From Buxus sempervirens (taxonomy: Eukaryota; Streptophyta; Magnoliopsida; Buxales; Buxaceae), in the NCBI GenBank assembly GCA_947561395.2, contig OX387184.1, forward strand, positions 35,330,766-35,394,765: a stretch of 64,000 nucleotides of DNA, in the 5' to 3' direction. This document shows positions 10,744-64,000 of the stretch, piece after piece (positions within the stretch are counted from its first letter, which is position 1; each line of letters begins with the position of its first letter). A program made the position numbers and the translations under genes. Below the pieces are notes generated by a model. It did no database searches and was not told the DNA's origin. It worked only from the letters and a program-made list of their open reading frames with translations.

Positions 10744-11763
10744 GTAAAGTTATGTTCATTCTATGCTTTGAATGATGCGGCATTAGGTGATTGTTGCCAT
10801 TTTGGGTTTGTTTCTGTTTCTTATGAGAGACCTTATTATAGTTTGAATTGCAAACTAGAAAGGTTCCAAACACTCTCGCAGAAGTGTGAGTTCTCTTTGC
10901 TTGCATTCATATTGACCATCACTCCACATAATCCTATCTGTACTCCCCACCAACCTAACTGTTAGAAACCATCAAGATTGAAGTACATAATGTTAGTTCT
11001 CTGTGTTTTAAACACATCTAAATTATGTATAAAACTTCATATAATGGTTAAAAAAATGCAAGAAACTAAAGTTCTGTCATCAGTTTGTTAACGATACTTC
11101 TCTTCAATAACAACATCCATTGTTAGACTAACCAATGTTAATTGGGATAGTATCATAATGTGTGTAAGCACCTCATTTTTGCACCCCTCTAAAAGCCAAA
11201 AAATGAAAACCCTAAGAGACAGGTCAAACCCTAGGTAGCAAAAATTGACTTTATGATAAAAAATGAATTGGCTGCCATACCCTATCCCAATGGATAAGAA
11301 ATCCTGACATGGTTCCAACACAATTGAGTTGGCGTAAATCAGAGTCCGGATAAAAAAGTTATGGTCAAAGCACTCTTAAGGGCAAAACTGTAATTAAATG
11401 TAGAAAAATGGCCACGTGGCAAATGTGCAAACCACGTTTGCCAAGTGGCAAATTAAAGGACAAAACACAAATACCAATGAGATTTCTCTCATTAATGAGA
11501 GATCATGAGTGAGATCTCTCTCATTAATGAGAGATCATGAATGGGATTTCTTTCATTAATAAGAGAGCATGAGAGATCATAAGAGAAATTTTGCCACGTG
11601 GCAAATGTGCAAACCATGTTTGCCAAGTGGCAAATTAAAGGACAAAACACAAATATCAATGAGATTTCTCTCATTTATAAAAAAATCATAGATGAGATTT
11701 CTCTCATTAATGAGAAATCATGAGTGGGATTTCTCTCATGATATCCCCCTCCCCTAACCTTAC

Positions 11764-20357: not shown

Positions 20358-20643
20358 GAGTCCTACGTTTGATGCATTCGAGTCCCACATTTTCTGCACT
20401 CTAGTCCCACGTTTGCTGTGCTTGAGTCCCATGTTTATCGTGCTCGAGTCCCATGTTAGACGCACTAGAGTCCCACATTTGATACATTCGAGTCTCATGT
20501 TTGCTGCACTCGAGTTCCACGTAAAATTTGCTCGAGTCCCACGTTGGAGGCTCTCAAGTCCCACAACTGATGCATTCGAGTCTCACGTTTGCTGCGCTTG
20601 AGTCCCATGTTTACAGCACTTGAGTCCCACGTTTAATGCCCTC
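20358..20643 (+). repeat. 22-bp minisatellite, 13 units
   Basis: Consensus near GAGTCCCACGTTTGATGCACTC. Thirteen consecutive units fit exactly 22 bp each (286 bp) with substitutions but no indels. The junction hexamer varies among CTCGAG, TTCGAG, CTTGAG, CTCAAG and CTAGAG. Open frames on both strands here are by-products of the repeat. Confidence 0.85.
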
Positions 20644-20670
20644 GAGTACGAAGTTGTGCTCGTGTCCCGC

Positions 20671-27247: not shown

Positions 27248-29164
27248 CTAATCTGGATGACTAAATTCATCAATATTCAAATCATCGAAGTCTCCAGCAA
27301 GTTGATCATCTTCATATTCCTGATCTTTTAGTTCCGCCCTTAACCAATTTGTAAGACTGACACATACTTGCACCATCTCTGGCGTTAATCTGCTCCTGTA
27401 GTCATCCATGGTTCGTCCACCTGCGATAAAAGCTGATTCCGATGCAACTGTAGACACCGGAACCGTTAGTAGATAACATGCCATGGTGGCAAGCACAGGA
27501 TAACTAACCTGATTTTGCTTCCACCATGTCAAAATATTAAAAGAATTATACTCTTCCATAGTATTGAAATTTATTGGAGGGCTTTTGAAATAAATCCTTA
27601 ATTCAAATGATCCCCCACTACTAGATGCTGGTTGTTTTCCCTTTCTTCTCCCACTTAAAAAATTCCAAGGGGAATTATCTGATAGTGCTTGTTGGGTTTG
27701 AGTATGACCATGTGTACTACTACTAGTATCATATTCACAAAAAAGTCTTTCTAATAGGGTTCTTATTTTACGTATATATATTTGAAAAGAAGAATTCATA
27801 TTCTCATTTATTCCATCTATTAAGTCTTCAACTCCTAATTTAATCCTAGGGTCCATTGTAGTAGCTAAATAATATAAATTAAGCATATCTTGCCAATATT
27901 TTAAAATTTTAGCTTCCATTGCAGGGCAAATATCCTTAGCAATGGGAATTTTTCTATATTGTTGAAAGCAAATACTTATTTGATATAAACAAGTTAAAAT
28001 ACTCGAGGATGTTGGGTAATAAACCGTTGATAAATATCTTGTTGCATCATAAAAAACTTTTAAAAAATCTCTTAAAATTTCTGCTATTTCCCAATCAAGG
28101 TCTATTAGTTCACTTTCAGTCACTTTAGTTTTATAAAATATTGTAAGTTCTTGTCTTAATGCTAGTGCAGCTTCTAGCATTAAATATGTTGAGTTCCACC
28201 TATGTTCAACATCTAGGGTAATTTTTTTAGGTTGCTTTCCTAAACTTTCACAATAATATTTAAATTCCCTAGCGGTTGTGCTAGATTGTTTTAAATATCT
28301 TACTGCATCTCTAATATTTGTTAAATGATGTTGGACAATTTTTAAGCCATCCTGCACAACTAAATTTAGGATGTGACAAGCACACCTAACATGAACTAAG
28401 CTTCCATCTATATTTAAGTTTAACTGTTGTCTTAATATTTCTACTGCAACATTATTAGCACTTGCATTATCAAGTGCTAGATCCATTATTTTATTGTGTA
28501 TTTTATATTTTCTTAGATTTCTACTTATAGCATTTGATATATTTAGTCCAGAATGCCTAGAATCTAGTGCTTCAAAAGTTAGTATTCTTTTTTCCATATT
28601 CCAATTTTCATCTATACAATGTGCAGTTATAGCTAAATAACTTATTTGTTGTCTAATTGTCCAAATATCTGAGGTTAAAGCTATCTTAAAGTTATTGTTC
28701 ACAAAAGTTTCTATTAATCCGGTTTTCATTTTTTCGTATAATTTTATAGCATCCTTTCTTAAAGTATGACATGAGAAAGATTTAAATTGTGGTGCAAGAT
28801 ATTTGGTTATTAAACGGTTAAATCTTTTAGATTCTATTAATTTAAAGGGTAATTCTTCTTGTATTACCCACTTTACTATTTCAAGCCTAGTTTCTTCTTG
28901 ATTAAAAACAAAATTACTCAAATTAACACTACTGCTAGAAATTTGGGCTTGCCTAGGGTCTAATTGGCCATGTTTTGGAAGGCATTTCTGCAAATGCCGT
29001 TGCAAGTGGCCTGTACCACTTTTTCCTTTACAACTAAAAGTTTTCTTGCAGTGGTTACAAACTGCCTTCTCTTCACTCCCTATATTTTCAATTGTAAAAT
29101 TGAGCCAAACATTGGAGGTTATACTCCTCTTGGCATTCTTAGGTGGTAGGGAAGATGATCCCAT
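27248..29164 (-). CDS. hAT-family transposase
   Basis: 638 codons open from ATG at 29164. A BED-type zinc finger has CNHC at residues 36-39 and an HLQRHLQKC run at 53-61. The RNase-H-like core carries the hAT catalytic triad: Asp166 in LTSDIWT, Asp232 in ALDNASANN, Glu576 in VASESAF. The C-terminal dimerisation domain spans about 555-612 and ends in the usual GGR-MDDYRSRLTPEMVQ block. An in-frame ATG 51 codons upstream (29317) reads MDPRRHPMFFNTEQREFLRP and then meets a single TAA at 29222-29224 before rejoining this ORF, so the longer product is cut by one stop. The internal ATG may still give a near-complete enzyme. The solo LTR at 29539 now separates the gene from its promoter. Confidence 0.9.
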   Translation of the reverse strand: MGSSSLPPKNAKRSITSNVWLNFTIENIGSEEKAVCNHCKKTFSCKGKSGTGHLQRHLQKCLPKHGQLDPRQAQISSSSVNLSNFVFNQEETRLEIVKWVIQEELPFKLIESKRFNRLITKYLAPQFKSFSCHTLRKDAIKLYEKMKTGLIETFVNNNFKIALTSDIWTIRQQISYLAITAHCIDENWNMEKRILTFEALDSRHSGLNISNAISRNLRKYKIHNKIMDLALDNASANNVAVEILRQQLNLNIDGSLVHVRCACHILNLVVQDGLKIVQHHLTNIRDAVRYLKQSSTTAREFKYYCESLGKQPKKITLDVEHRWNSTYLMLEAALALRQELTIFYKTKVTESELIDLDWEIAEILRDFLKVFYDATRYLSTVYYPTSSSILTCLYQISICFQQYRKIPIAKDICPAMEAKILKYWQDMLNLYYLATTMDPRIKLGVEDLIDGINENMNSSFQIYIRKIRTLLERLFCEYDTSSSTHGHTQTQQALSDNSPWNFLSGRRKGKQPASSSGGSFELRIYFKSPPINFNTMEEYNSFNILTWWKQNQVSYPVLATMACYLLTVPVSTVASESAFIAGGRTMDDYRSRLTPEMVQVCVSLTNWLRAELKDQEYEDDQLAGDFDDLNIDEFSHPD

Positions 29165-31069
29165 CTCTTGGGAAGGAAATTCACTTTCATGATCTTGGAT
29201 GGGAGGGTCACCATATGGGGGTTAGGTTATATCATCAGAAAAGGTTGAGTCAGAAAAGGGTCTAAGAAATTCCCTTTGTTCAGTGTTAAAGAACATAGGA
29301 TGCCGCCTAGGGTCCATTATCAAATTTTGGAAAAAACATTCTTAATAGGTAATATAATAATAAATTTTTGGTGATACTAATTTATAAGAAAGGTAGAAGG
29401 AGAGACTTACTTATAATAATAATATTTATACTAATTTTAAAATCAGAAAATTAAATAGAAGAATACCTCTTTAGAACGAAGTTTGAACTTTGCAGTTGAA
29501 GCCTTCAACCTTCAGAGTCCAATTTCCCACTTCTGATGTGTGCGCACCCGATTTCGGTCGCACGACGAGGCGCACGCTAAACGATGAGTGCCTCGGGATT
29601 GTTTGGAGTCACCACTGCCTGATGGGGTGCAGGCAGACACCTGGGTGCCTAAGTTCGTCTACTAAGGCTTGGTTTGCGGCTTGAGATTCTAAGTAGGTTC
29701 TTGGTTGCGGTCTGGGGAAGTCCGTAGATACCCCAGTCCACCCCGTCAAGTGACGGGTCCCCTAGGTTTCCCTGGTTTGAGTCAACTCTGGTTTCTCACT
29801 CACCCGATTCCTAATCTAGCATTCAAATTTGATTTAAGTCTGGCGAGACTGCCAGAGTGGTGTGGGTCCCTTTCCTTGATTTTATCTTTTTAGTTAAAGT
29901 GAGATGAGTCTGATTGGGCGGGCCCCGTTGGAAGGCCCGCGGATTCCTTGGTGGGCTTGGTTGAGCCCACGTGTCCCTTGGTGGGCCTTGGTCTAGCCTG
30001 AGAGTCCCTTTGGGCTTGGTTCAAATGGATTGATTTTACTTTAAAGTTTAAGTTGAATTTAAAGTGATTTTCATGCAAATGTGGGCCGGGTTGGTTTGTG
30101 GGCCACACAGCCGGTTGCCAAATGATTTAATTTATCTTTGATTTATCTTCACCAAAATGGGCCAGGCATGTGGCTTGGGGCCCTTTACCTGGGCTTGGGC
30201 CTGAAAGCCCAAGGCTTCTTGAGTTAGGGTTTAGAAACCCTAACCTTGGTTGGGTTCAATGGGCTTAGTGGGCCCGATATGTAAGACCCTGATTTTTGGT
30301 GAGTTTATTTTTGTTTTATTTATTATTATTATTATTATTATTAAAATATATAGCTTGGGCGCTAGTTAACCTAAGTGGCCGGAACATGTAGGGTTTCCAG
30401 TGGGCGAGCGCGCATAGGATCAAGGAGTTAAAGAGGGATCGGGCGGCGTATGTATCGCAAGGGAAATATACCAAAAGGGGAAAGTAGGGTTTGGGTGTAA
30501 ACGAATACTCGTATCGTACTTATGGAAATATTTTCGTTAGTCTCGTTATCTGGAGAACTGGGCGACTTGGCGATTGCGGCTATTAATGGCGATTAGGGTT
30601 ATTCCCGTGAAGACAAGAATAGGAAGAACTACTAGGAGGTTATTGGAGTCGGATTTCTGTGGGTTATTTCTCTCGCGAGCAGAGGATTCGTGCGGCTACC
30701 ATTTCATCTTCGCGCGCAGCCGGAGTCGTGCTCGGCCGGTTGTGAAAGAGGCTGTTGTTCTGGGATTAAGCGCATACGGTGAGTAGCACTGATTTAAAAC
30801 CGAGGTTTTAGTTTTCTTCGTGACATATTTCGAGTGCCATGGTTGTATGGTTGTATTGTGAGTTCTGGGTTTTTCTGGAATACCGTAAGTCCGAATGTTA
30901 GATTGAAAAATTAAATTGAAATTAAAGATTTTTAGATTAAATCCAAAATTGGTTGGGAAGTCTTCTGGGAGCATTGGGAGTGTATTGGAGCAATTACAGA
31001 CCCAAACAAACCAGCCAGAATTGGAGATCTCGAAATAACAGAGACTTGAAATTCGTAGTGGGTATCCGC

Positions 31070-49467: not shown

Positions 49468-49498
49468 CTGGCCCTCTATTTATAAGCATTTTTTTCGT

Positions 49499-49705
49499 GC
49501 CCGTATTTGAAGTACGGGCATGCCTTGCCCGTATTTCAAATACGGACATGCCTTGCCTGTATTTCAAATACGGGTGAGCCCACGTGATAAAATCTAGCGA
49601 ATCCACCAGTTGTCGCCGTACGGGACGCGTGTCCCACTTCTAGAAGCTTAGAACTATATTTCGAATACGATCGTGCCTTGACCGTATTTTAAATACGGTC
49701 ACGCA
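49499..49705 (-). repeat. CCCGTATTT/AAATACGGG hairpin cluster
   Basis: GCCCGTATTTGAAGTACGGGC, GCCCGTATTTCAAATACGGAC and a third copy are joined by ATGCCTT spacers. After a gap comes GACCGTATTTTAAATACGGTC at 49680-49700. Position 2 of the stem is C:G in one group and A:T in the other. Confidence 0.7.
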
Positions 49706-51959: not shown

Positions 51960-52251
51960 TGTGTTGACTCATTCTAACTAGGGGTTCTATTTGGTCGAAA
52001 AAGTCCCGAGCGGAGTCACCAAGCTGTACTGGTCTGCGGCTTGAGATTCTAGGTAGGGTCTCGGTTACGGTCTGGGGAAGTCCGTAGACACCACGGTACG
52101 CCCCGTCGGTTGACAGGTCCCATAGATTTATCCTGGTTTGAGTCAACTCGGTCTTTTACTCACCCGATTCCTAATCCAGCATGCAATTGGGTTAAGTCTG
52201 GTGGGACCACCTGGGTGGTGCGGGTCCCTTAATTGTTTTTATCTTGTTAAT
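51960..52251 (-). mobile_element. LTR of the DUF7745-type element, inner part
   Basis: Contains the block GGTCTGCGGCTTGAGATTCT and the GTCCGTAGACACC block seen in the TGTAAGCACC LTRs. Thus this LTR belongs to the same wider family. It is cut at 52251 by the gag-only element and continues from 63946 past the window end. Confidence 0.65.
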
Positions 52252-52411
52252 TGTAGACACCCCAAATTGCACTAAAAATGAGAAAATAATTGAAAATATT
52301 AATTGGGATTTGAAACAGGTCAAAAAAAAGTGTAAAATCTGGCCAAACTGGTCATGACCGTATTTTGTTTACGGACTGGTCATACCTGCAGTTGATATAC
52401 AGTCACGGCGT

Positions 52412-52460
52412 GCCCGTATTAATAATACGGGCAGGGCGCGACCGTAATATATATACGGTC
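52412..52460 (+). repeat. Two co-varying hairpins in LTR U3
   Basis: GCCCGTATTAATAATACGGGC (52412-52432) and GACCGTAATATATATACGGTC (52440-52460). The second stem pair is C:G in one and A:T in the other. Copies occur in the right LTR near 62278-62330. Confidence 0.75.
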
Positions 52461-52670
52461 ACGGGGGTCTTTGTGCGAATTTTACCTTTTTAATTTTTGA
52501 GGCTTATCTGCACCCAAATATCTCTCTTGGATAATCGAATTCTCTTATTTATCTGTTCGAATTATCTCATTTATCCTTGGTTGGATATGGATGGGCATTA
52601 TCTCCAATTTTCACTCTATCCTGAGAATCAGGATATATCCTTCTGGACCAGCCTTGCCCCTGTGCTTGCC

Positions 52671-52680
52671 TATAAATAGA
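52671..52680 (+). promoter_or_regulatory. LTR TATA box
   Basis: TATAAATAGA, duplicated at 62537 in the right LTR. Transcription would start about 30 bp downstream. Confidence 0.65.
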
Positions 52681-52780
52681 GGGTCTCTCCTCTAGCTTAG
52701 GGCCACGAAATTTTGAGTCCAAGGAATTCTAAGAAGCTCCAAGAGAAGAGAAAGAACTCCTGCTGCCTGCCTGCTCAATC

Positions 52781-52789
52781 CAGGTAAGT
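52781..52789 (+). promoter_or_regulatory. Conserved 5' splice site in LTR leader
   Basis: CAG|GTAAGTC, a consensus plant donor about 100 bp after the TATA box, intact in both LTRs (62647). Similar donors sit at the same place in other LTR families here (12042 and after 23980), suggesting a spliced leader. Confidence 0.5.
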
Positions 52790-54077
52790 CCCCTATCCTT
52801 TTTTATTCTCTGTCTTCAATTCTAGAAGTAATAGGATCATCTCTATTGCTGTAGAATAAGGCCATATCTATTTTGTATCCCTAAACTTGTCTCCAAGTAC
52901 CTCAAGGGTCTCTCTAGCCGTAAAACGTGAAGAGAGAACTAGGGGAAAGGGGAACAGGTGGATCCCTAGAATAGAACCCCATATCTGTTTTTTTTCTTTT
53001 AGAATAAAGCCTCTGATTGTGTTTGTGTAACCAAACCTATCTCCAAGTACCTCAAGAGTCTCTCTAGCCGTAAAACGTGAAGAGAGAACTAGGGGAAAAG
53101 AGAACAGGTGGATCTGTAGGGTAGATCCCCATGTGCTCTAATTTGTGAGATATGGCTGTTTTAAATATCCTGATCATGTTTTAATGCTTTTTATGATATA
53201 TCTGAATGAATTACATGAATCTATGATGTTTATAGCATGAGATCCTCACTTTTTGATAAAATTTGGATTTTTGCCACTTTTGCGCCTACAGCACTGTTTT
53301 CGTGATTTTTGCGATTTTAGGCTAGGATCTTGGATTTATCATGATCAATATGATAGATCTGAATCCAGAAGCCTAAAAGTAAATTCTAGAGTTTCATGAT
53401 GTGGTTTTTGATTTGTTTTCCCCTTTTGAGAGAAGACCCTACGGTCTAAATTCTCCCTTTTTTATGTTTTTCATAAACGTAGGTATTTTTGGTTTTGATT
53501 TTCTGATTTAATGTGAAATTTGGGCTTTATCTATGTCTTGGACTATTCAAGTTCAATTTTGAAATATTTTATAAAAATCATATTTTTCTAGATTTCTAGA
53601 ATTTGACTTGAAGCCAGATTTTTGGATTTTTCAATTTAAATTGTTTTTATTCAATTTTATCTCAAATTTGTTTTGATCATGAAACCCTAGGAATGGTATG
53701 ATCATGTTTGATAGTTCTGGATCAATCAGACTATTCATATGAAAAAACCATATATTTTTGCCTTTTTTTTGTGATTTTTCATGATTTTTATAGCAAGCTT
53801 TTTCCTTTAATTTAATATGAACAAAACCTGGCAACCACCTTGTGTGGATGAATAGGGGTGCCTAACACCTTCCCCTGTTCATAACTTAATCCCCTTACCC
53901 ATCTCTGGTTGTTTTTTTTAGGAGGGATATTTTGCCCTAAAATTTGCCTTTTGTGCTTATTTGATATTTTGGTGTCCATTCACACCTAAATTGAATGGTG
54001 GCGACTCTTTGTTTTATTTAATCTCGTGCGATGATTGAGGAAATCATGTAGATTGATTTTTTCCCATGTCTCACAAC

Positions 54078-54096
54078 TGGCGACTCTGCTGGGGAC
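54078..54096 (+). other. Primer-binding site
   Basis: TGGCGACTCTGCTGGGGAC starts 2 bp after the left LTR. It begins with the TGG complement of CCA. Its sequence fits the tRNA-Arg primer used by Tat/Ogre elements; the tRNA identity is from memory of that group. Confidence 0.75.
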
Positions 54097-55294
54097 TTGT
54101 GGATTTGAGCCTTTTGGTGTTTTAGTTCATGTTTTTGATTTTTTGATTTGCTTGCTATTTTATGTTCTTAAGCATGTTGAGTATATTTTAAATCTGAATT
54201 ATTGCTTAAGAATTCATGGGGGTAGAAACATGCTTAATTTTGATTTATAGGATTGTTTCTACAAACATGCGTAGGGGAGGTCCGTTTTGCTGAACCATGC
54301 TTATTTCTTGCTATATTTTTATGATAGCATGTTTTAATTTTCAGCATGATCTCCATGATGATTTTGGGTGTATAACATGATCATATGTTTGCATGATAGA
54401 TGATTTTTTTTATGAGCATGTTTTGGGGGCTATAGGATTGCTTTATTTACGTGTTTACTTTAAATATGCTTTCCTATTATGCCTTGGTTTGTTTATGCAT
54501 GGCTGCGAAAATAGTGGCAAGGGTTTGGGACGTTGTGAATGCACCCTATTTTTACAATGCACTGTGCACCTTTTACTTTTACACAGCCTACCCTTAACCT
54601 ATAGGAAGTTGAACCCGAATGTGTGTAGCTTGGCGCAACGAGGTCGATACTTCGGAAAGCGAAAGTGAAAACATTCACCTTAGAACTTTGAGCTAATGAT
54701 GTGATGATAACGTGGATCTGGGATTCTGGTCATCACTAGGCTTGAGTGCTAAGTTGCCATTAAGCCAAAACCCAAAACCCCTACGCTTGAAGGTGGAGTT
54801 ACACGTTTTTTGCTAAAGTATACAATTACGTGGGGATATGGGTTTGTATGATTGTGGGAAGGCCGCATGGCTTACAAACCAGGGCATAATGCGGATGCCA
54901 TATTGAAGGTAAACAAGGTAACAAAGTAATCCTATTGTTTTGCATTATTTTCATGTCATAGGGGTGTCATGGTACCCATTGGGTCGGGATAAAATTGGTC
55001 CCAAAATATGCATATTTTCTAAAATTGGTGCAACCCATAGGAAGAGTTTCTAACTCTGTTTAGAATCAATCCTACCCAATGTTCATACAAGAGGCAACAA
55101 AAGGGTACCAAATTCTTGAGTATGGTGTCAATTCGAAGAGTACATGTGCCCTCCTAAGCATGTGTTTTAGCAAAAAGGCCAAAGTCCACTTTGGGACAGT
55201 TTAGAAGCTCTGCAATGGGTGAACCGTACGTTTGGATGAACAATGAAAGTGACCAAACCATGTAAAAACTGAAAAAATATAACAAGGTTCCGTA
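54097..55294 (+). other. 5' leader of the gag-only element
   Basis: About 1.2 kb without a supported ORF between the primer site and the hairpin words at 55295. Short open frames at 54035-54668 on both strands lack any family resemblance. Confidence 0.4.
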
Positions 55295-55435
55295 AAACCG
55301 CATTTAGTACACGGGCTGGGCTTGCCCGTATTGGTTATAAGGGTTAGGCTCGCCCGTGGATTGCATACGGTCACGGCTTGCTCGTAATTTGAATACGGGC
55401 AGGGCTGGACCGTACTGTGTATACGGTTTTCTCGG
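55295..55435 (+). repeat. GCCCGTA/TACGGGC word cluster in leader
   Basis: ACGGGCTGGGCTTGCCCGT, GGCTCGCCCGTGGATTGCAT, CTCGTAATTTGAATACGGGC and GACCGTACTGTGTATACGGT, the same vocabulary as the LTR hairpins, here internal. Confidence 0.55.
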
Positions 55436-55568
55436 AATATTCAACTTTAATCTGTTTTTCTCACTAAAATCTTCCTTTAACCTTTAAATAATGATAAAGG
55501 GAAACAAGTTTGAATAAAATGCTTCAAAAAAAAATAATTGAGATAAAAAAAAATAGAGAAAGGTTCCT

Positions 55569-56871
55569 TGGGCTTCTGAAAGCCTTTGAATTTCAGACTT
55601 TTTCAAAACTCTTGGGCTTCTGAAAGCCTTTGAATTTCAGATTTTTGAAAAAAATCCGGGGCCTCTGAAAGCCTTTGAATTTCAGATTTTTCAAAAAATT
55701 CCTCGGGCCTCTGAAAGCCTTTGAATTTCAGACTTTTTCTTAAAAAAACTTTTCGGCCTCTGAAAGCCTTTGAATTTCAGACTTTTTCTCAAAAACTCCT
55801 TGGGCCTCTGAAAGCCTTTGAATTTCAGATCTTTTGGGCCTCTGAAAGCCATTGAATTTCAGACCTTTTTCTTTTGGGCCTCTGAAAGCCTTTGAATTTC
55901 AGATTTTTCAAAAATCCTTGGGCCTCTAAAAGCCTTTGAATTTCAGACTTTTTTTTTTCAAAAACTCCCTGGGCCGTCTAAAAGCCTCTGAATTTTAGAC
56001 AAACTTTTTCTTTGGGCCGTCTATAAGCCTCTGAATTGTAGACACATATCCTTTGGGCCGTCTAAAAGCCTCTGAATTTTAGACAATCATTTCTTTGGGC
56101 CATCTAAAAGCCTCTGAATTTTAGACAAATCATTTTTGGGCCGTCTAAAAGCCTCTGAATTTTAGACAAACCTTTTCTTTGGGCCGTCTATAAGCCTCTG
56201 AATTATAGACACATCATTTCTTTGGGCCATCTAAAAGCCTCTGAATTTTAGACAAATGATTTCTTTGGGCCGTCTAAAAGCCTCTGAATTTTAGACAAAT
56301 CATCTTTTTGGGTCGTCTAAAAGCCTCTGAATTTTAGACAAATCATCTTTTTGGGCCGTCTAAAAGCCTTTGAATTTTAGACAAATCATTTCTTTGGGCC
56401 GTCTATAAGCCTCTGAATTATAGACACATATCCTTTGGGCCGTCTAAAAGCCTCTGAATTTTAGACAAATCATTTCTTTGGGTCGTCTAAAAGCCTCTGA
56501 ATTTTAGACAATCATTTCTTTGGGCCATCTATAAGCCTCTGAATTATAGACACACATTCTTTGGGCCATCTATAAGCCTCTGAATTATAGACACATATCC
56601 TTTGGGCCTCTGAAAGCCTTTGAATTTCAGACTTTTTTCAAAAATATCCCTGGGCCTCTGAAAGCCTTTGAATTTCAGACCTTTTCCAAAAATATCCCTG
56701 GGCCTCTGAAAGCCTTTGAATTTCGGACATTTTCCAAAAATACCCCTGGGCCTCTGAAAGCCTTTGAATTTTGGACCTTTTCCAAAAATATCCCTGGGCC
56801 TCTGAAAGCCTTTGAATTTCGGACCTTTTCCAAAAATACCCCTGGGCCTCTGAAAGCCTTTGAATTTCAGA
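55569..56871 (+). repeat. 30-unit hairpin array with three co-varying stem classes
   Basis: Unit about 43 bp: TTTGGGCC, hairpin, then a T/A-rich spacer. Class A (units 1-9 and 25-30): CTGAAA gcctttgaa TTTCAG. Class B (10,12-14,16-19,21,22): CTAAAA gcctctgaa TTTTAG. Class C (11,15,20,23,24): CTATAA gcctctgaa TTATAG. Outer bases extend the stem (T...A or GT...AC). Both arms change together. Arm-level deviations: units 27 and 29 (TTTCGG), unit 28 (TTTTGG, two changes) and unit 11 (TTGTAG) are all G-U compatible on the plus strand; only unit 9 has an A-C mismatch. Antisense open frames here are by-products. Confidence 0.9.
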
Positions 56872-57115
56872 TCATTTTCTCTTTTTGTGGGACCTGTTGG
56901 AAGCCCTAGAATATTCCAACAATTCAATTCAAAAAAAAAAAAAAAAGAAGCAAATAAAGAAAAAAATCCAAACTCGTGTTCACCCAGCTTGCACATAGGC
57001 ATTCCTAGGCATGTGAATGAGATTAATTGGGCACTGATATTTTTCCTTTATTTTATGACCAGGTACCAATACACTTGCAATCATAGCCCCTGTAACCAGA
57101 TCAAGAGCTCGAGCC

Positions 57116-58174
57116 ATGAATCCCATTGAAGACGAAGCTGATGCTCCTCACCCAGATATCGTCTTGTTACAAGAGCAAGTGGCAGGACTAGCCCGAATGC
57201 TAGAGAACATACTGTCAGTACAGGCCCAACAAGTGCAGGCTCAACAAATGCAGGCCCAGAACCAAGCATCCACTTCCAACCCTGTACCTCCACCCCAAAT
57301 CAATATTCCACCCCCAGTGCAACCAATTCCTGAACCCATCCATGAAACCACTTATGAACCTATGGTGACCAAGGATGAAACAGTTGAATCAGAAAAGGCT
57401 AAGGAAAAGGAAAAAATGAGGGAAGAAATGGAAAAGAAGTTCATGCAAAGACTGGAAATGATCCAGGATGAACTAAGGGAAGTAAAAGGGGTAAACAACT
57501 TTGGGGGCACCAATTTTGAAGACATGTGCCTATACCCCCATGTTAACCTACCGGCTAAGTTTAAATGCCCAGATTTTGATAAATATGATGGCACTGGCTG
57601 CCCAATGAGCCATTTGAAGTTATACTGCGGGGCTTTATGCCATTTTGGCCGGGATGACGGCATACTAATTCAACTCTTCCAGAGGAGTTTAACTGGAGCT
57701 GCTTTGAAGTGGTTTACCACTTTGGATCATGGGAAAATAAGAAGGTGGAAGGATTTAGCAGATTCCTTTTTGGCACAATACAGGTTCAACTCTGAGATTA
57801 TACCAGATAGGTATGACATGATGAGGATGACAAAGAGAAATGATGAGACCATAAGGCAATATGCTAAAAGGTGGAGGGAGTTGGCTGCACAAGTCAAGCC
57901 ACCCATGGGAGAACCAGAAATGATTTCAACTTTCATCATGACATTGGGGCAACCATTTTACAGTCACTTGGTGGGTCAAACTACCACCAACTTTGCTGCC
58001 CTAGTGCAAGTGGCAGACAGAATTGAAGATGGGATCAAGTCTGGGAAAATAGCTGATTACTCTGCAGTGTTGAACCAGGAAGCTTCCACCACTTTCTCTA
58101 CACAGAAAAAGGAGAATGGTAATGGAAGAATAAAGAATGAAGAAAGGAGAGAAGCAGAAGTGAATATGGTGTAA
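57116..58174 (+). CDS. gag: Gag polyprotein, N-terminal and capsid part
   Basis: 352 codons from ATG. Residues about 1-80 are Pro/Gln-rich with QAQQ repeats. A charged coiled-coil follows (about 85-125). The capsid-type retrotransposon gag domain spans about 145-310, including KCPDFDKYDGTG, ALKWFTTLD, FLAQYRFNSEI and VGQTTTNFAALVQVADRIEDG, as in Tat/Ogre-group gag. Gag would coat RNA in virus-like particles in the cytoplasm. The frame ends at TAA 58172-58174 but stays open in the same frame afterwards, so this stop looks like a recent mutation that separates capsid from the zinc knuckle. Confidence 0.85.
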   Translation: MNPIEDEADAPHPDIVLLQEQVAGLARMLENILSVQAQQVQAQQMQAQNQASTSNPVPPPQINIPPPVQPIPEPIHETTYEPMVTKDETVESEKAKEKEKMREEMEKKFMQRLEMIQDELREVKGVNNFGGTNFEDMCLYPHVNLPAKFKCPDFDKYDGTGCPMSHLKLYCGALCHFGRDDGILIQLFQRSLTGAALKWFTTLDHGKIRRWKDLADSFLAQYRFNSEIIPDRYDMMRMTKRNDETIRQYAKRWRELAAQVKPPMGEPEMISTFIMTLGQPFYSHLVGQTTTNFAALVQVADRIEDGIKSGKIADYSAVLNQEASTTFSTQKKENGNGRIKNEERREAEVNMV

Positions 58175-58829
58175 CTTCCCAGGGAACCCTTTCAAATCAA
58201 TGCCCATCCACCTCCTATCAAGCCAACCCATCAAGTTCCTTTGCTGCCTATCCAAATTAATGTCCCTTTTGCACAGCCTGTGAAGGAGGAAACAGAAGTA
58301 AGGAAGAGAAGAGAATTTTCTAAACTGCCTATGAGACCAGCTGAACTTTTGCCTACTTTACTTCAAAAGGGTTACGTGACTTTGAGGTTGCCAAATCCTC
58401 ATGCAAGCAAAGGGAAAGGTTATGATTCATCTGCAATATGTGATTATCATATGAGCACTCCAGGGCATACCACTGATCGTTGCTTGGCCCTAAAGCATGC
58501 AATCCAGGATTTGTTGGATAATAACTCCTTATCATTCAAATTCAGTCACTCCCATCCCACCTACTGATAACAATGGGGCAGGCGGCTCAAATGCAATAGG
58601 GGCAATTTTCTCTGGAGAAAGAAGATTTGACCCTTCTCAGCTTATCGCTCCTATTGGTCCAGCAGCCAGGGTTTATCTTGAAAGAAATGCTCCTGGTTAT
58701 GAGCAGGAAGGCTTGCCTTACTCAGCAAGAGAAAGAAATTATCAGAAAAAGGGAGAAAAGTCAACTTTTGCCTTTGAGAACAGGGGCAGTTTTCGAACTC
58801 CCATGTTCTTTGAAAAGAAACTCTCATAA
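58175..58829 (+). pseudogene. gag: Gag C-terminal part after a stop and a frameshift
   Basis: Same frame as the capsid part up to 58567. It includes a knuckle-like CDYHMSTPGHTTDRC (C-x2-H-x4-GH-x4-C) and ALKHAIQDLLD, typical of Tat-group gag. A change of frame near 58535-58560 continues as TDNNGAGGSNAIGAIFSGER to about 58829. No protease or polymerase follows. Confidence 0.7.
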
Positions 58830-61500
58830 GAAGAATGCACATTTCCTGAGGATCCTAAAGAGCCTTGTTCTCAGGAAGTGATTTCAATAAAGGCTCTTCA
58901 AAAAAAAAAAAAAAAGATTTTTTCCTTTAACATTTTTCTAGAAAAAAATAAAAAGTTTTCAGCAAGGTCCTTTTACTTATGAATCATATCTCTTATTGAA
59001 TTTCATTGAGTTGAATATGACTTTGACATTGGGCTCAATTTTGAGACCAAAATCGAAGAAAAAGACATTTTATGTGAAAATTCAAATCTTTTTAAGTGTC
59101 ATGAGAAGAATATTCTGCAAAATTATGAAGTGACCAATTTTATGGCCTTTTGAACCAAAGATGACCCACAGTCTTCAATAGAAAAGATAGAAGATGATTT
59201 GAAGTTTTTTTCATTAGAATACAGAAAGAATCGAACCACTTGCTGATTCGTTCAAAGGGAAGTTGATAATATTGTTTGAAGAAATTTTAGGGCTTTGCAC
59301 TTGAAAATATGGGAGAAGATTTGACATTTTCGTTGGAAATAGAATTGGGCATCATTTGATGGAAAGAATCCAAATTCAAAAGATTGATTTAAAGGTGAAG
59401 AGCTTGTTCATAACAGAGGTTCTATTTGAAGATGCTTTTATCTTGACAGAAGGTGATTACGAAGAAAAAAAAAGAGAAGAAAAAATCCTAAGCCAGTCAT
59501 GTAGTACAACTTTACCAAGTCTAAAAATTCAATTTTTCTTAAAATGATAAGAGGCCTTTCTTTCTTATATCCCCAAAAATTTTAAAATCCCTAGTTAAAC
59601 CCTTTGAGCTTGATACATTTTTCCAAGTAACCTAAACTGAGAATTGTAACCCCACACTGGGGCAAATTTATTAAGGCATAAAAAAAAAAAAGGAATGAAG
59701 GGACAATTATTGAAGTTCAAAAGGGATTTTGAATATGTTTTCAGAAAAGGGGGCAAAGAAATGAAAAAAAAAAAGGAAAAAGAAAGAAAAAAAAAGGAAG
59801 AAAAAAAAGATAATCAAATGCTATTTGGAGAATGTCTTCAAAATTGTGAAAAAAAGAATGGAAAAAAGAAGTTCAATAGTGGAGAATAAGTTGAGGGAAG
59901 AACTTCATTACTGGGGGCAATTTTGTATTCATTCCAAGGGAAGAAATGCCTTAAAAATTACAATTTCAGTTAACCTATTTGATCATAGGGTATTTGAGCT
60001 TTTTATTCCTTTTCTTTCTAAACTAACACCAAGCCTTTGTTTCGTCCCATTCATAAGTCCTCTTTGATTAAGAAATTTTGAATTAAGGCAGTTTTGACTA
60101 CATGGTTGTTGGTGATGAAGGATAAAAAAAAAAAAAAAAGATGAAAAAAAAAAGAAAAAAAAAAGAAGAAAAAGAAAAAGGAAAAAATGGAGAAAATGTA
60201 GTGAAAACCCGGAAGAGTGCTACATGGCAAATAATCAGCTATCTACAAGAAGGAAATCGTCAGAGAGGAAAGTCCAGAATTGGTATAGATCCAGGTGAAG
60301 TCCTCATGTTGGTGGTTATTTTGAGATACAGTCACTCTTCAAGTGATTAAGGAAAATTCTCTTTTCAAGACTGAAGCAACATAATCATAACTATGATATG
60401 AATCATCTGTGAACAAGTTGATGGCCATCAAAATTGCCATTAGGAAATTATTGCTGAAGTTGAAGTCATAAATTCTCATATCATGGATGCAATGGAGAAA
60501 CAATTGCTCTTCAATTGGATGAAGGAAAATGTCTTTCTAGACTGGGGCAAAATAGTCAGATTGAAAGAGTTGTCATATCTGGAGCATCAATTGACAAGCC
60601 GATGGTCATGGGAGTGATTCTAAAGGTTCCGAAGGCTTATTTTGGTCTTTCTGCATTTTCTGAAATAATCTTCTCATTATTCAGCTTGATTTTAATTCTT
60701 TTGGACTATATGCTAATAAGTGATTGGATCATTTTTAAAAAAAAATATATAAAAACACAAAAAAGCAAAAACTATATTTTTGGCCTATGATGAGAATCTA
60801 TATCTTTTCATAAAACATTGGTTTTGTAAGCATTAGAGAATTCTGAGGCCACTAGTATAAAACATATTTTCTTATGTTTGCATTTGCATTCTTCTATTAG
60901 GGTTTCTTTTTGGCAAAGGTTAAAAAAAAAAAAAAAAAAAGAGAAAAAGAAAAAAAAAAGAGAGAGAAAAAGGAAAAAAGAGGATCATCTCTATTGAGGG
61001 GCAAATACTTCTTCAAACTGGGGCATGCTCAGTGTCTTTCCTTCTGGGTTTTCATTGGAATGAATTCCAACATCTGGAAGAAGCAGTCAAGCTTTAGTCT
61101 TCGAATTTGAAAGAAAAAAAAGGCTTCGAAGCAATGGCATGTTTTCTTCATTAAACAAGGGTTCCCAATTCTTCAATCATGAAGAAGGATTTTACTGGGG
61201 CAACAAGAAGGCATGAAAGACAGATCATGGGTTGTAAAGGCATGAGGTTAGATCAACAGATCATGATCCATCAATCAAGATGAGGGCATTCACTTGGGCA
61301 ATTAAAAAGCATGAAGACAGGTTATGGGCAGTAAGGGCACATACATCATTATTGAGAGAGTAAGAAGATAAAGAAGCAAAAGCAAGTTGCAGAATATTCA
61401 AGCACAGGTTCGGGCATCAAATGACACCCAGGTATATCAAATAAGAAAATCAATCAGGAAAATTCAAAAAAGTGAAAAACATCAAAATCAATTGAGTTTG
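58830..61500 (+). other. Long non-coding 3' region with A/AG tracts and GGGGCA motifs
   Basis: No pol remnants recognised. AAAG-rich tracts at 58900, 59760-59810, 60125-60185 and 60920-60980 create low-complexity open frames. ACTGGGGCA or close variants recur at about 59655, 59913, 60540, 61018 and 61194. Diverged duplications are visible, for example 60350-60440 against 60520-60610 and 61194-61250 against 61290-61345. Confidence 0.55.
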
Positions 61501-61539
61501 CAGTGGTCAATTTTAAATCCACATTCTTTTCAAAATTTG

Positions 61540-61593
61540 CTTATCTCAGATTTCTTTTCATAGCCACGAGAGCTCTAAGAAATCTGAGATAAG
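61540..61593 (+). repeat. 17-bp-stem hairpin with loop TTCATAGCCACGAGAGCTCT
   Basis: Perfect stem CTTATCTCAGATTTCTT / AAGAAATCTGAGATAAG around a 20-nt loop. The loop core recurs at 61898 with a different stem. Confidence 0.8.
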
Positions 61594-61890
61594 GAAGAGA
61601 CACCACTCCATCAGACTTCAAGCAGGGGTTTCATTGGCTATCTTTGAATCCATGTTTTTATCATTTCTTTGTTTGACCAAAGCAAGTTCAATTAATGAGA
61701 TGTTTTTCAAATGTGCAAATTTGAGTTGTGTCTGTTCTTTGCTGTTCATTGTGCTACAACTGCAGGCCACCCAGAAAAATTGTCTTTTTCATCATTTTCT
61801 CCACACTTTTCAAAAGATCAATGTCTATATTAGTTGTAAGTTGCAAGGATTGCCACCATACTCACTTTTGTTTAAAAATTTTGTCTCAAA

Positions 61891-61922
61891 TCTCACTTCA
61901 TAGCCACGAGAGCTCAGTGAGA
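61891..61922 (+). repeat. Second hairpin with the same loop core
   Basis: Stem TCTCACT / AGTGAGA around TCATAGCCACGAGAGCTC. The 18-nt loop is identical to that at 61558-61575 while the stem is unrelated in sequence. Confidence 0.8.
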
Positions 61923-62103
61923 AGAGAGAGGAGGATTTGGCCCTTAAGTTGAGGGACTTCTTAGCAAATCTTCCACAATCAATTTTTTTTTCAAAAATCA
62001 TCCATTTAATCCTTGCAAAGTGCAATTGATTAGACAAAAATCTTAGAAAGTGCAATTGGTGGGTCTTTTTGCTCTCTGCTTGTAATTGGTTCCAATTATC
62101 AGC

Positions 62104-62117
62104 AAAGAGGGGGCAGC
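62104..62117 (+). other. Polypurine tract
   Basis: AAAGAGGGGGCAGC directly before the right LTR, the form seen in Tat-group elements; it primes plus-strand DNA synthesis. Confidence 0.85.
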
Positions 62118-63945
62118 TGTAGACACCCCAAATTGCACTAAAAATGAGAAAATAATTGAAAATATTAATTGGGATTTGAAACAGGTCAAAAAAAAGTGTA
62201 AAATCTGGCCAAACTGGTCATGACCGTATTTTTTTTACGAACTGGTCATACCTGCAGTTGATATACGGTCACGGCGTGCCCGTATTAATAATACGGGCAG
62301 GGCGCGACCGTAATATATATACGGTCACGGGGGTCTTTGTGCGAATTTTACCTTTTTAATTTTTGAGCCTTATCTGCACCCAAATATCTCTCTTGGATAA
62401 TCGAATTCTCTTATTTATATGTTCGAATTATCTCATTTATCCTTGGTTGGATATGGATGGGCATTATCTCCAATTTTCACTCTATCCTGAGAATCAGGAT
62501 ATATCCTTCTGGACCAGCCTTGCCCCTGTGCTTGCCTATAAATAGAGGGTCTCTCCTCTAGCTTAGGGCAACGAAATTTTGAGTCCAAGGAATTCTAAGA
62601 AGCTCCAAGAGAAGAGAAAGAACTCCTGCTGCCTGCCTGCTCAATCCAGGTAAGTCCCCTATCCTTTTTTATTCTCTGTCTTCAATTCTAGAAGTAATAG
62701 GATCATCTCTATTGCTGTAGAATAAGGCCATATCTATTTTGTATCCCTAAACTTGTCTCCAAGTACCTCAAGGGTCTCTCTAGCCGTAAAACGTGAAGAG
62801 AGAACTAGGGGAAAGGGGAACAGGTGGATCCCTAGAATAGAACCCCATATTTGTTTTTTTCTTTTTCTTTTAGAATAAAGCCTCTGATTGTGTTTGTGTA
62901 ACCAAACCTATCTCCAAGTACCTCAAGAGTCTTTCTAGCCGTAAAACGTGAAGAGAGAACTAGGGGAAAAGAGAACAGGTGGATCTGTAGGGTAGATCCC
63001 CATGTGCTCTAATTTGTGAGATATGGCTGTTTTAAATATCCAGATCATGTTTTAATGCTTTTTATGATATATCTGAATGAATTACATGAATCTATGATGT
63101 TTATAGCATGAGATCCTCACTTTTTGATAAAATTTGGATTTTTGCCACTTTTGCACCTACAACATTGTTTTCGTGATTTTTGCGATTTTAGGCTAGGATC
63201 TTGGATTTATCATGATCAATATGATAGATCTGAATCCAGAAGCCTAAAAGTAAATTCTAGAGTTTCATGATGTGGTTTTTGATTTGTTTTCCCCTTTTGA
63301 GAGAAGACCCTACGGTCTAAATTCTCCCTTTTTTATGTTTTTCATAAACGTAGGTATTTTTGGTTTTGATTTTCTGATTTAATGTGAAATTTGGGCTTTA
63401 TCTATGTCTTGGACTATTTAAGTTCAATTTTGAAATATTTTATAAAAATCATATTTTTCTAGATTTCTAGAATTTGACTTGAAGCCAGATTTTTGGATTT
63501 TTCAGTTTAAATTGTTTTTATTCAATTTTATCTCAAATTTATTTTGATCATGAAACCCTAGGAATCGTATGATCATGTTTGATAGTTCTGGATCAATCAG
63601 ACTATTCATATGAAAAAACCATATATTTTTGCCTTTTTTTGTGATTTTTCATGATTTTTATAGCAAGCTGTTTCCTTTAATTTAACATGAACAAAACCTG
63701 GCAACCACCTTGTGTGGATGAATAGGGGTGCCTAACACCTTCCCCTGTTCATAACTTAATCCCCTTACCCATCTCTGGTTGTTTTTTTTAGGAGGGATAT
63801 TTTGCCCTAAAATTTGCCTTTTGTGCTTATTTGATATTTTGGTGTCCATTCACACCTAAATTGAATGGTGGCGACTCTTTGTTTTATTTAATCCCGTGTG
63901 ATGATTGAGGAAATCATTAGAATTGATTTTTTCCCATGTCTCACA
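62118..63945 (+). repeat. Right LTR of the gag-only element
   Basis: 1828 bp, starting TGTAGACACC and ending TCTCACA, followed by TTAAT. It matches the left LTR including TATA (62537), donor (62650) and tandem duplication. A 5-bp difference lies in the pyrimidine tract near 62865. Confidence 0.92.
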
Positions 63946-64000
63946 TTAATTAAGTGGTCTGAGTCTGAGTGGGTGGGGCCCGTTGGAAGGCCCACGGATT
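63946..64000 (-). mobile_element. LTR of the DUF7745-type element, resumed
   Basis: After TTAAT, the text GTGGTCTGAGTCTGAGTGGG and GGCCCGTTGGAAGGCCCACG matches the same region of the TGTAAGCACC LTRs (for example 14020-14060). It continues off the window. Confidence 0.65.

What the first reader, a model, noticed from the sequence alone, without database searches (positions are those of the whole stretch)
55569..56871. 30-unit hairpin array with three co-varying stems around a nearly constant loop
Seen directly: stems switch among CTGAAA/TTTCAG, CTAAAA/TTTTAG and CTATAA/TTATAG while loop GCCTYTGAA and flank TTTGGGCC stay. Classes are arranged A(9)-mixed B and C(15)-A(6). Across 30 units I count six base-level deviations in the six-base arms (units 9, 11, 27, 28 twice, 29), and five are G-U pairs on the gag-sense strand; on the other strand these would be A-C mismatches. 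That asymmetry suggests pairing in genomic RNA, perhaps for packaging, dimerisation, translation control or Gag binding. Alternative: quasi-palindrome correction by template switching during reverse transcription could create matched arms without selection. I know of no description of this.
Basis: partly seen in the sequence, partly recalled or inferred. Interest (0 to 1): 0.9.

Follow-up and report, generated by a model that had tools for sequence, protein, structure and literature searches.

The report
Hairpin array in retrotransposon leader
A plant jumping element carries dozens of near-identical hairpins in front of its coat-protein gene; the stems differ in matched pairs between the main repeat types, and the array seems to lie in an intron, which would confine it to the unspliced RNA copy.

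Summary
It lies between PBS and gag of an LTR retrotransposon in which I found no pol (52252-63945, TSD TTAAT). The genome holds 29,845 exact unit matches and 2,666 near matches to the hairpin that ends the array.

In 61 arrays, class A shows 81 G-U versus 78 A-C events; genome-wide at one pair, 783 G-U versus 918 A-C. 116 of those 159 events fall at CTG/CAG, as 5mC decay after insertion would give. Recent double changes are not in excess.

New: the leader looks like a 4,279-nt intron: conserved CAG|GTAAGT in the LTR, T-rich CAG|GTAC before gag, U content stepping at both ends, upstream AUGs falling from 79 to 0. The array would then mark unspliced RNA. Splicing is unproven; packaging or export is inference.

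The parts
52247..52251 (.). target-site duplication TTAAT, 5' copy
   Evidence: identical TTAAT at 63946-63950
52252..54075 (+). 5' LTR, TGTAGACACCCC...TGTCTCACA
   Evidence: 98.47% identical to 62118-63945 over 1830 columns; ends read
52671..52679 (+). TATA-like box TATAAATAG; transcript start assumed about 30 nt downstream
   Evidence: sequence; start site inferred
52781..52789 (+). predicted 5' splice site CAG|GTAAGT (exon 1 ends 52783)
   Evidence: the only AGGTA[AT]GT in the element apart from the 3' LTR copy; intact in 38 of 40 aligned loci, rank 4 of 181 nine-mers in the surrounding 200 bp
52784..57062 (+). predicted leader intron, 4279 nt, holding U5, PBS, leader and hairpin array
   Evidence: U 35.3% against 19.0% in exon 1 and 21.9% in exon 2; splice sites. 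Splicing itself not shown
54078..54095 (+). primer binding site TGGCGACTCTGCTGGGGA
   Evidence: abuts the 5' LTR; conserved in most loci that reach it. tRNA type not tested; Arg is recalled
55568..56871 (+). array of 30 hairpin units (A 1-9, B/C 10-24, A 25-30)
56895..56921 (+). terminal hairpin T31, TGTTGGAA-GCCCTAGAATA-TTCCAACA, a diverged relative of the units
   Evidence: fold -9.0 kcal/mol; 2,666 genome matches with up to 3 mismatches
57040..57062 (+). predicted 3' splice site, T-rich tract ending CCAG|GTACC
   Evidence: best pyrimidine score of 90 [CT]AG sites scanned; AG|GTA in the 18 of 24 loci where it was found
57116..58174 (+). gag (Retrotrans_gag), first ATG after the predicted acceptor, in-frame stop at 58172-58174
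   Evidence: PF03732 E 5.5e-13
62118..63945 (+). 3' LTR, preceded by AAGAGGGGGCAGC (polypurine tract-like)

Best explanation
The array is a multi-copy cis-acting RNA element of a Tat-like Ty3/gypsy retrotransposon. Shown: each unit is a 7-8 bp stem with a nearly fixed 9-nt loop; the stem is kept through paired changes between unit types; the core is conserved while the neighbouring bases vary; it lies between PBS and gag in one orientation. Strongly suggested: the whole leader from the LTR R region to just before gag is an intron, so Gag is made from a short spliced mRNA without upstream AUGs, while only unspliced RNA keeps PBS and array. Inferred: the hairpins mark the unspliced RNA as genome, most likely as repeated binding sites for Gag (packaging or dimerisation) or for an export factor. 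Stem changes seen inside single copies are mostly methylation-driven decay after insertion and tell nothing about function.
For: All 42 inner pairs of six stem types are Watson-Crick; only the true pairing of arms reaches this among 720 whole-arm permutations, and 0 of 20,000 column shuffles do; tool count: covariation score 0.575 against 0.235 +/- 0.073, 0 of 500 shuffles. In 1,048 class-A units core sites differ in 0-4.9% while the two bases after the stem differ in 38.5% and 40.6%. No inverted hairpin among 2,619 pattern hits in 65 arrays (hits overlap between patterns). Sense RNA of the B/C block folds below 20 of 20 shuffles (z -2.39), antisense does not (z -0.04). Intron: 79 ATGs in the 4,415-nt unspliced leader, 0 in the 136-nt spliced one; donor intact in 38 of 40 loci; U content steps 16 to 44% and 42 to 20% at the two borders. 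Three acceptors (L092, L093, L096) carry 16 nt identical to the end of exon 1 joined to exon 2.
Against: No strand asymmetry of G-U over A-C: 81:78, 783:918. No excess of compensated doubles in class A: 5 doubles at partner sites, 4 compensated (two of these adjacent units of one array), 3.1 expected; non-partner control 10 against 9.25. Some imperfect stems are shared by two or more arrays. Stem types are few and related; shuffles ignore descent; type E is one array only. The A-B and A-D differences are transitions at CTG/CAG hot spots, so mutation bias could have helped. No exon 1-exon 2 copy in the genome with up to 3 mismatches, although spliced RNA would lack the PBS. No transcript data. 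A single class-A unit does not fold better than its shuffles (z -0.62).
Confidence: 0.4

Rival explanations
1. Neutral minisatellite: the array is a by-product of slippage or template jumping during reverse transcription, like other tandem repeats of Tat-lineage elements; a few founder units that happened to be palindromic were multiplied.
For: Classes are founders shared by copies across the genome; unit number varies from 5 to 50 in the sampled arrays; arm changes inside classes are independent; Retand papers describe family-specific tandem arrays of unknown function (passages).
Against: Does not explain perfect pairing in all six types nor why the core is conserved while adjoining bases vary.
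Confidence: 0.25
2. Quasi-palindrome correction: template switching inside the hairpin during replication or reverse transcription rewrites one arm from the other, giving matched arms without selection.
For: Explains paired transversions such as B to C; one array (L080) holds two adjacent units with a new matched pair.
Against: Recent mismatches are not corrected: compensated doubles are near expectation and over a thousand G-U or A-C mismatches at one pair persist. No loop inversion seen. Does not explain conservation of loop and GGGC flank.
Confidence: 0.15
3. The array acts on the intron itself: it slows or regulates splicing, or brings donor and acceptor together, setting the ratio of gag mRNA to genome.
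For: Array lies near the acceptor of the predicted intron, ending 191 nt before it; GGCC flanks pair between units in the fold.
Against: No splicing data; unit number varies widely between copies.
Confidence: 0.15
4. The leader is not an intron and Gag is made from the long leader by internal entry or shunting, the hairpins being part of that.
For: Plant pararetroviruses shunt over structured leaders (abstract seen).
Against: 79 upstream ATGs, strong splice-site pair and U-content steps.
Confidence: 0.05

Closest known systems
Tandem repeats of Tat-lineage (Ogre/Retand) LTR retrotransposons
   Same: Family-specific tandem arrays in the non-coding part of large Ty3/gypsy elements; gag PF03732; gag relatives named in Theobroma and legumes.
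   Different: Described arrays lie between pol and the 3' LTR (passages of PMC11963269); this one lies between PBS and gag and its units are hairpins with paired changes. That paper's text has no 'hairpin'.
Retroviral packaging/dimerisation signal (psi) downstream of the major splice donor
   Same: Structured RNA in the leader, downstream of a donor in or near the LTR, so lost from spliced RNA (comparison recalled).
   Different: Here dozens of tandem copies, and the spliced RNA would be the gag mRNA. No Gag binding shown.
BARE1 separate RNA pools
   Same: Plant retroelement that separates Gag translation from genome RNA, in part by splicing (passages of PMC3735527).
   Different: BARE1 removes a 104-nt intron at the end of gag; here a 4.3 kb leader intron is predicted upstream of gag.
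Diaspora (soybean Ty3/gypsy)
   Same: Very long leader with predicted donors in the LTR and acceptors at gag; the authors state that no intron upstream of gag was reported for any LTR retroelement as of 2005 (passages of PMC1142308).
   Different: 'tandem repeat' and 'leader' do not occur in that text; no conservation test in the passages seen.
Intronic Ogre and EVADE elements
   Same: Plant LTR retroelements with functional introns (passages of PMC12786077; the primary Ogre paper PMC2596294 is not held).
   Different: The Ogre splicing described is between ORFs, not upstream of gag.

Membership tests
LTR retrotransposon | two LTRs, TG...CA ends, target-site duplication, PBS next to 5' LTR | tested here: met
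   LTRs 98.47% identical, TSD TTAAT, PBS at 54078
Ty3/gypsy, Tat clade (Ogre/Retand) | Retrotrans_gag and additional RNase H between RH and INT | tested here: inconclusive
   gag PF03732 met; no pol found in this copy (only ORFs of 150 aa or more looked at, four of them scanned), so the RNase H feature could not be tested
Tat-lineage tandem repeats of the pol-3'LTR region | array located between pol and 3' LTR | tested here: not met
   array lies between PBS and gag
Conserved structured RNA | covariation above background between homologous sequences | tested here: met
   between six unit types; not met among recent changes inside class A
Conserved structured RNA (sense strand) | G-U preferred over A-C on the functional strand | tested here: not met
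   81:78; 783:918
Described Rfam family | match at gathering score | tested here: not met
   one match, far below gathering score, outside the array
Spliceosomal intron | conserved donor and acceptor, U-rich interior | tested here: met
Spliceosomal intron | spliced RNA | not testable with these tools
   no transcript data; 0 spliced genomic copies, inconclusive
Retroviral-type packaging signal | binds Gag and is needed for packaging | not testable with these tools
   needs RNA binding and packaging assays

The most novel reading that the evidence does not exclude
A plant LTR retrotransposon splits its transcript by a 4.3 kb intron upstream of gag, so that spliced RNA makes Gag and only unspliced RNA keeps PBS and a tandem array of dozens of covarying hairpins that serves as a repeated, length-variable packaging or dimerisation signal; non-autonomous copies may compete through unit number.
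Probability: 0.2. Interest if true: 0.85.

Novelty: new variant of a known kind. Interest (0 to 1): 0.6.

Why it matters
How plant retrotransposons tell genome RNA from messenger RNA is little known; a conserved leader intron holding a multi-copy hairpin signal would give a testable answer in a family with over two thousand copies in one genome. The work also shows that G-U/A-C asymmetry read from one copy is unsafe: in transposon arrays methylation decay dominates, and the informative contrast is between founder types.

Tried and rejected
Sense-strand G-U preference: rejected. Ongoing compensation or arm correction: no excess. Related arrays in viral contigs: 16 contigs with one hit each and no array. 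Rfam: nothing relevant. Full exon 1-exon 2 copies as proof of splicing: none. The earlier junction search gave 139 matches, 100 listed; of the 8 I fetched, all have intron sequence upstream, so they are ordinary acceptors, three of them with a 16-nt exon-1-like tract. Further B/C/D arrays and rare B/C stem variants: not obtained. Literature: eight searches listed no paper that I recognised as describing a hairpin array between PBS and gag or an intron upstream of gag; I opened passages of five papers only.

Limits of the sample: 60 of the 65 arrays are from contig C1, picked because the terminal hairpin matched exactly (62 of the 100 places listed, of 2,666 counted), four by the first hairpin hits, one is the window (L027 and L028 belong to both). 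Arrays L033, L034, L059, L087 were dropped as near-identical copies, and 6 units with more than 3 changes, leaving 1,264 of 1,342 units. Units were found by similarity to the core (up to 5 mismatches, 4 positions free), which favours conserved cores, though 1,335 of 1,342 had 2 or fewer mismatches. Spacer positions were compared without alignment, so length variation inflates the farther ones.

Full report
WHAT IS THERE. The window lies in a 676.5 Mb genome of 247 contigs; the gag relatives with a named source are from flowering plants such as Theobroma and Trifolium. An LTR retrotransposon spans 52252-63945 with TSD TTAAT and LTRs 98.47% identical. Order: 5' LTR, PBS at 54078, leader, hairpin array 55568-56871, terminal hairpin 56895-56921, gag 57116-58174, about 3.9 kb with no open frame of 150 aa or more, 3' LTR. 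The gag frame has an in-frame stop at 58172-58174, after which the same frame goes on for 130 codons. Pfam was run on four ORFs only; no pol was found, and the short ORFs were not scanned.

THE ARRAY. Genome-wide the unit pattern has 14,853 + 14,992 exact matches, reversed-pattern control 0; the terminal hairpin has 2,666 matches with up to 3 mismatches. In 65 arrays I found 1,342 units; the 61 non-duplicate arrays have 5 to 50 units, median 19. Perfect stems: A 894, B 144, C 68, D (TTTGAAA/TTTCAAA) 8, E (TCTGGAA/TTCCAGA) 2. D has 829 exact matches genome-wide. In L025, a B/C/D array, units resembling the terminal hairpin form a short array upstream of it, so that hairpin is a repeat type too.

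STRAND TEST. The two arms are reverse complements, so a strand-neutral process must give equal numbers of G-U and A-C deviations. Class A, identical units counted once: 81 G-U, 78 A-C, 47 other (binomial p 0.87); B 4:3, C 2:1. Genome-wide at the G-C pair: CTGAAA/TTTTAG 783, CTAAAA/TTTCAG 918, p 0.001 in the opposite direction if units were independent, which they are not. Of the 159 class-A transitions 116 are C-to-T or G-to-A at the CTG/CAG positions (32+31+29+24). That CHG sites are methylated and decay this way in plant transposons is general knowledge, not tested here.

COMPENSATION TEST. Recent level: among 1,005 class-A-context units, 5 had both partners changed, 4 of them compensated (two are neighbours in L080), against 3.1 doubles expected; non-partner doubles 10 against 9.25. 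So there is no excess. Type level: A, B, C, D, E and the terminal hairpin T31 have 42 of 42 inner pairs Watson-Crick, with two-sided changes at inner pairs 1, 2, 4 and 5; 1 of 720 whole-arm permutations (the true one) and 0 of 20,000 column shuffles reach this (arms aligned by hand). On the MAFFT alignment, which misplaces the T31 gap, 93.8% of cells pair and the score is 0.575 against 0.235, 0 of 500. The outermost pair is unpaired in A and E. Descent is not modelled, and A-B and A-D are single-step transitions at hot spots in each arm, so the strongest items are B-C (a double transversion) and T31 (three pair changes).

CONSTRAINT. In 1,048 class-A units core sites have minor fractions of 0-4.9% and GGGC before them 1.7-4.5%, while the two bases after the stem have 38.5% and 40.6%. 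Imperfect units shared by two or more arrays exist. No inverted unit was seen.

INTRON. CAG|GTAAGT at 52781 is the only such donor in the element apart from the 3' LTR copy. In one search, 42 of 64 loci gave an alignable donor region; the nine-mer is intact in 38 of 40, rank 4 of 181, median 0.46. The acceptor was found by pattern in 18 of 24 loci, each AG|GTA (17 CAG, one TAG); 8 of the 18 had been chosen for a junction-like sequence; among 12 others from the array sample 9 were found. L025 and L026, missed by the pattern, show it by eye. U content: exon 1 19.0%, intron 35.3%, exon 2 21.9%; border windows 16 to 44% and 42 to 20%. The transcript start is assumed from the TATA box. From there 79 ATGs precede gag unspliced and 0 spliced; one of the 79 lies in the array. 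Full junction copies: 0. Three acceptors with 16 nt of exon-1 sequence may be chimaeras of spliced and unspliced RNA; chance is not excluded.

FOLDS. The B/C block, sense, z -2.39; antisense -0.04, 20 shuffles each. Single units: A -5.9 (z -0.62), B -7.0 (z -3.45), C -7.6 (z -4.08), T31 -9.0 kcal/mol (z -3.75); the antisense units also fold (z -0.27 to -2.51).

LITERATURE. Passages only of PMC6317226, PMC11963269, PMC3735527, PMC12786077, PMC1142308. The last says that no intron upstream of gag was known in any LTR retroelement in 2005; I found no later report in the searches named, in a library that lacks most subscription journals.

VERDICT. The best reading is a conserved hairpin signal carried by unspliced RNA; splicing and function need experiments.

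Noticed in passing
52355-52470 and 62220-62335 (LTRs), 55300-55426, 49495-49575: Another dyad-symmetric repeat, about 28 nt, built from TACGGGC/GCCCGTA and TACGGTC/GACCGTA: neighbouring hairpins in the LTR carry different but matched arms. It also occurs in the leader just upstream of the array and at another place in the window.
   Followed up: partly
L025:490-800: Upstream of a B/C/D-type array lies a short tandem array of units resembling the terminal hairpin T31, with a second TTGGTTGG...CAATCAA segment in each unit.
   Followed up: no
L092, L093, L096: Acceptor regions in which the last 16 nt before gag's exon equal the end of exon 1, possibly from template switching between spliced and unspliced RNA.
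   Followed up: partly
11478-11739: 32-nt tandem repeat with palindromic core TCTCTCATTAATGAGAGA inside a duplicated block.
   Followed up: no
20358-20647: 22-nt GAGTCCCACGTTTGATGCACTC tandem array in 88-nt higher-order periods.
   Followed up: no
27248-29221 (-): 657-aa open frame of a hAT transposase (PF05699, PF14372, zf-BED).
   Followed up: no
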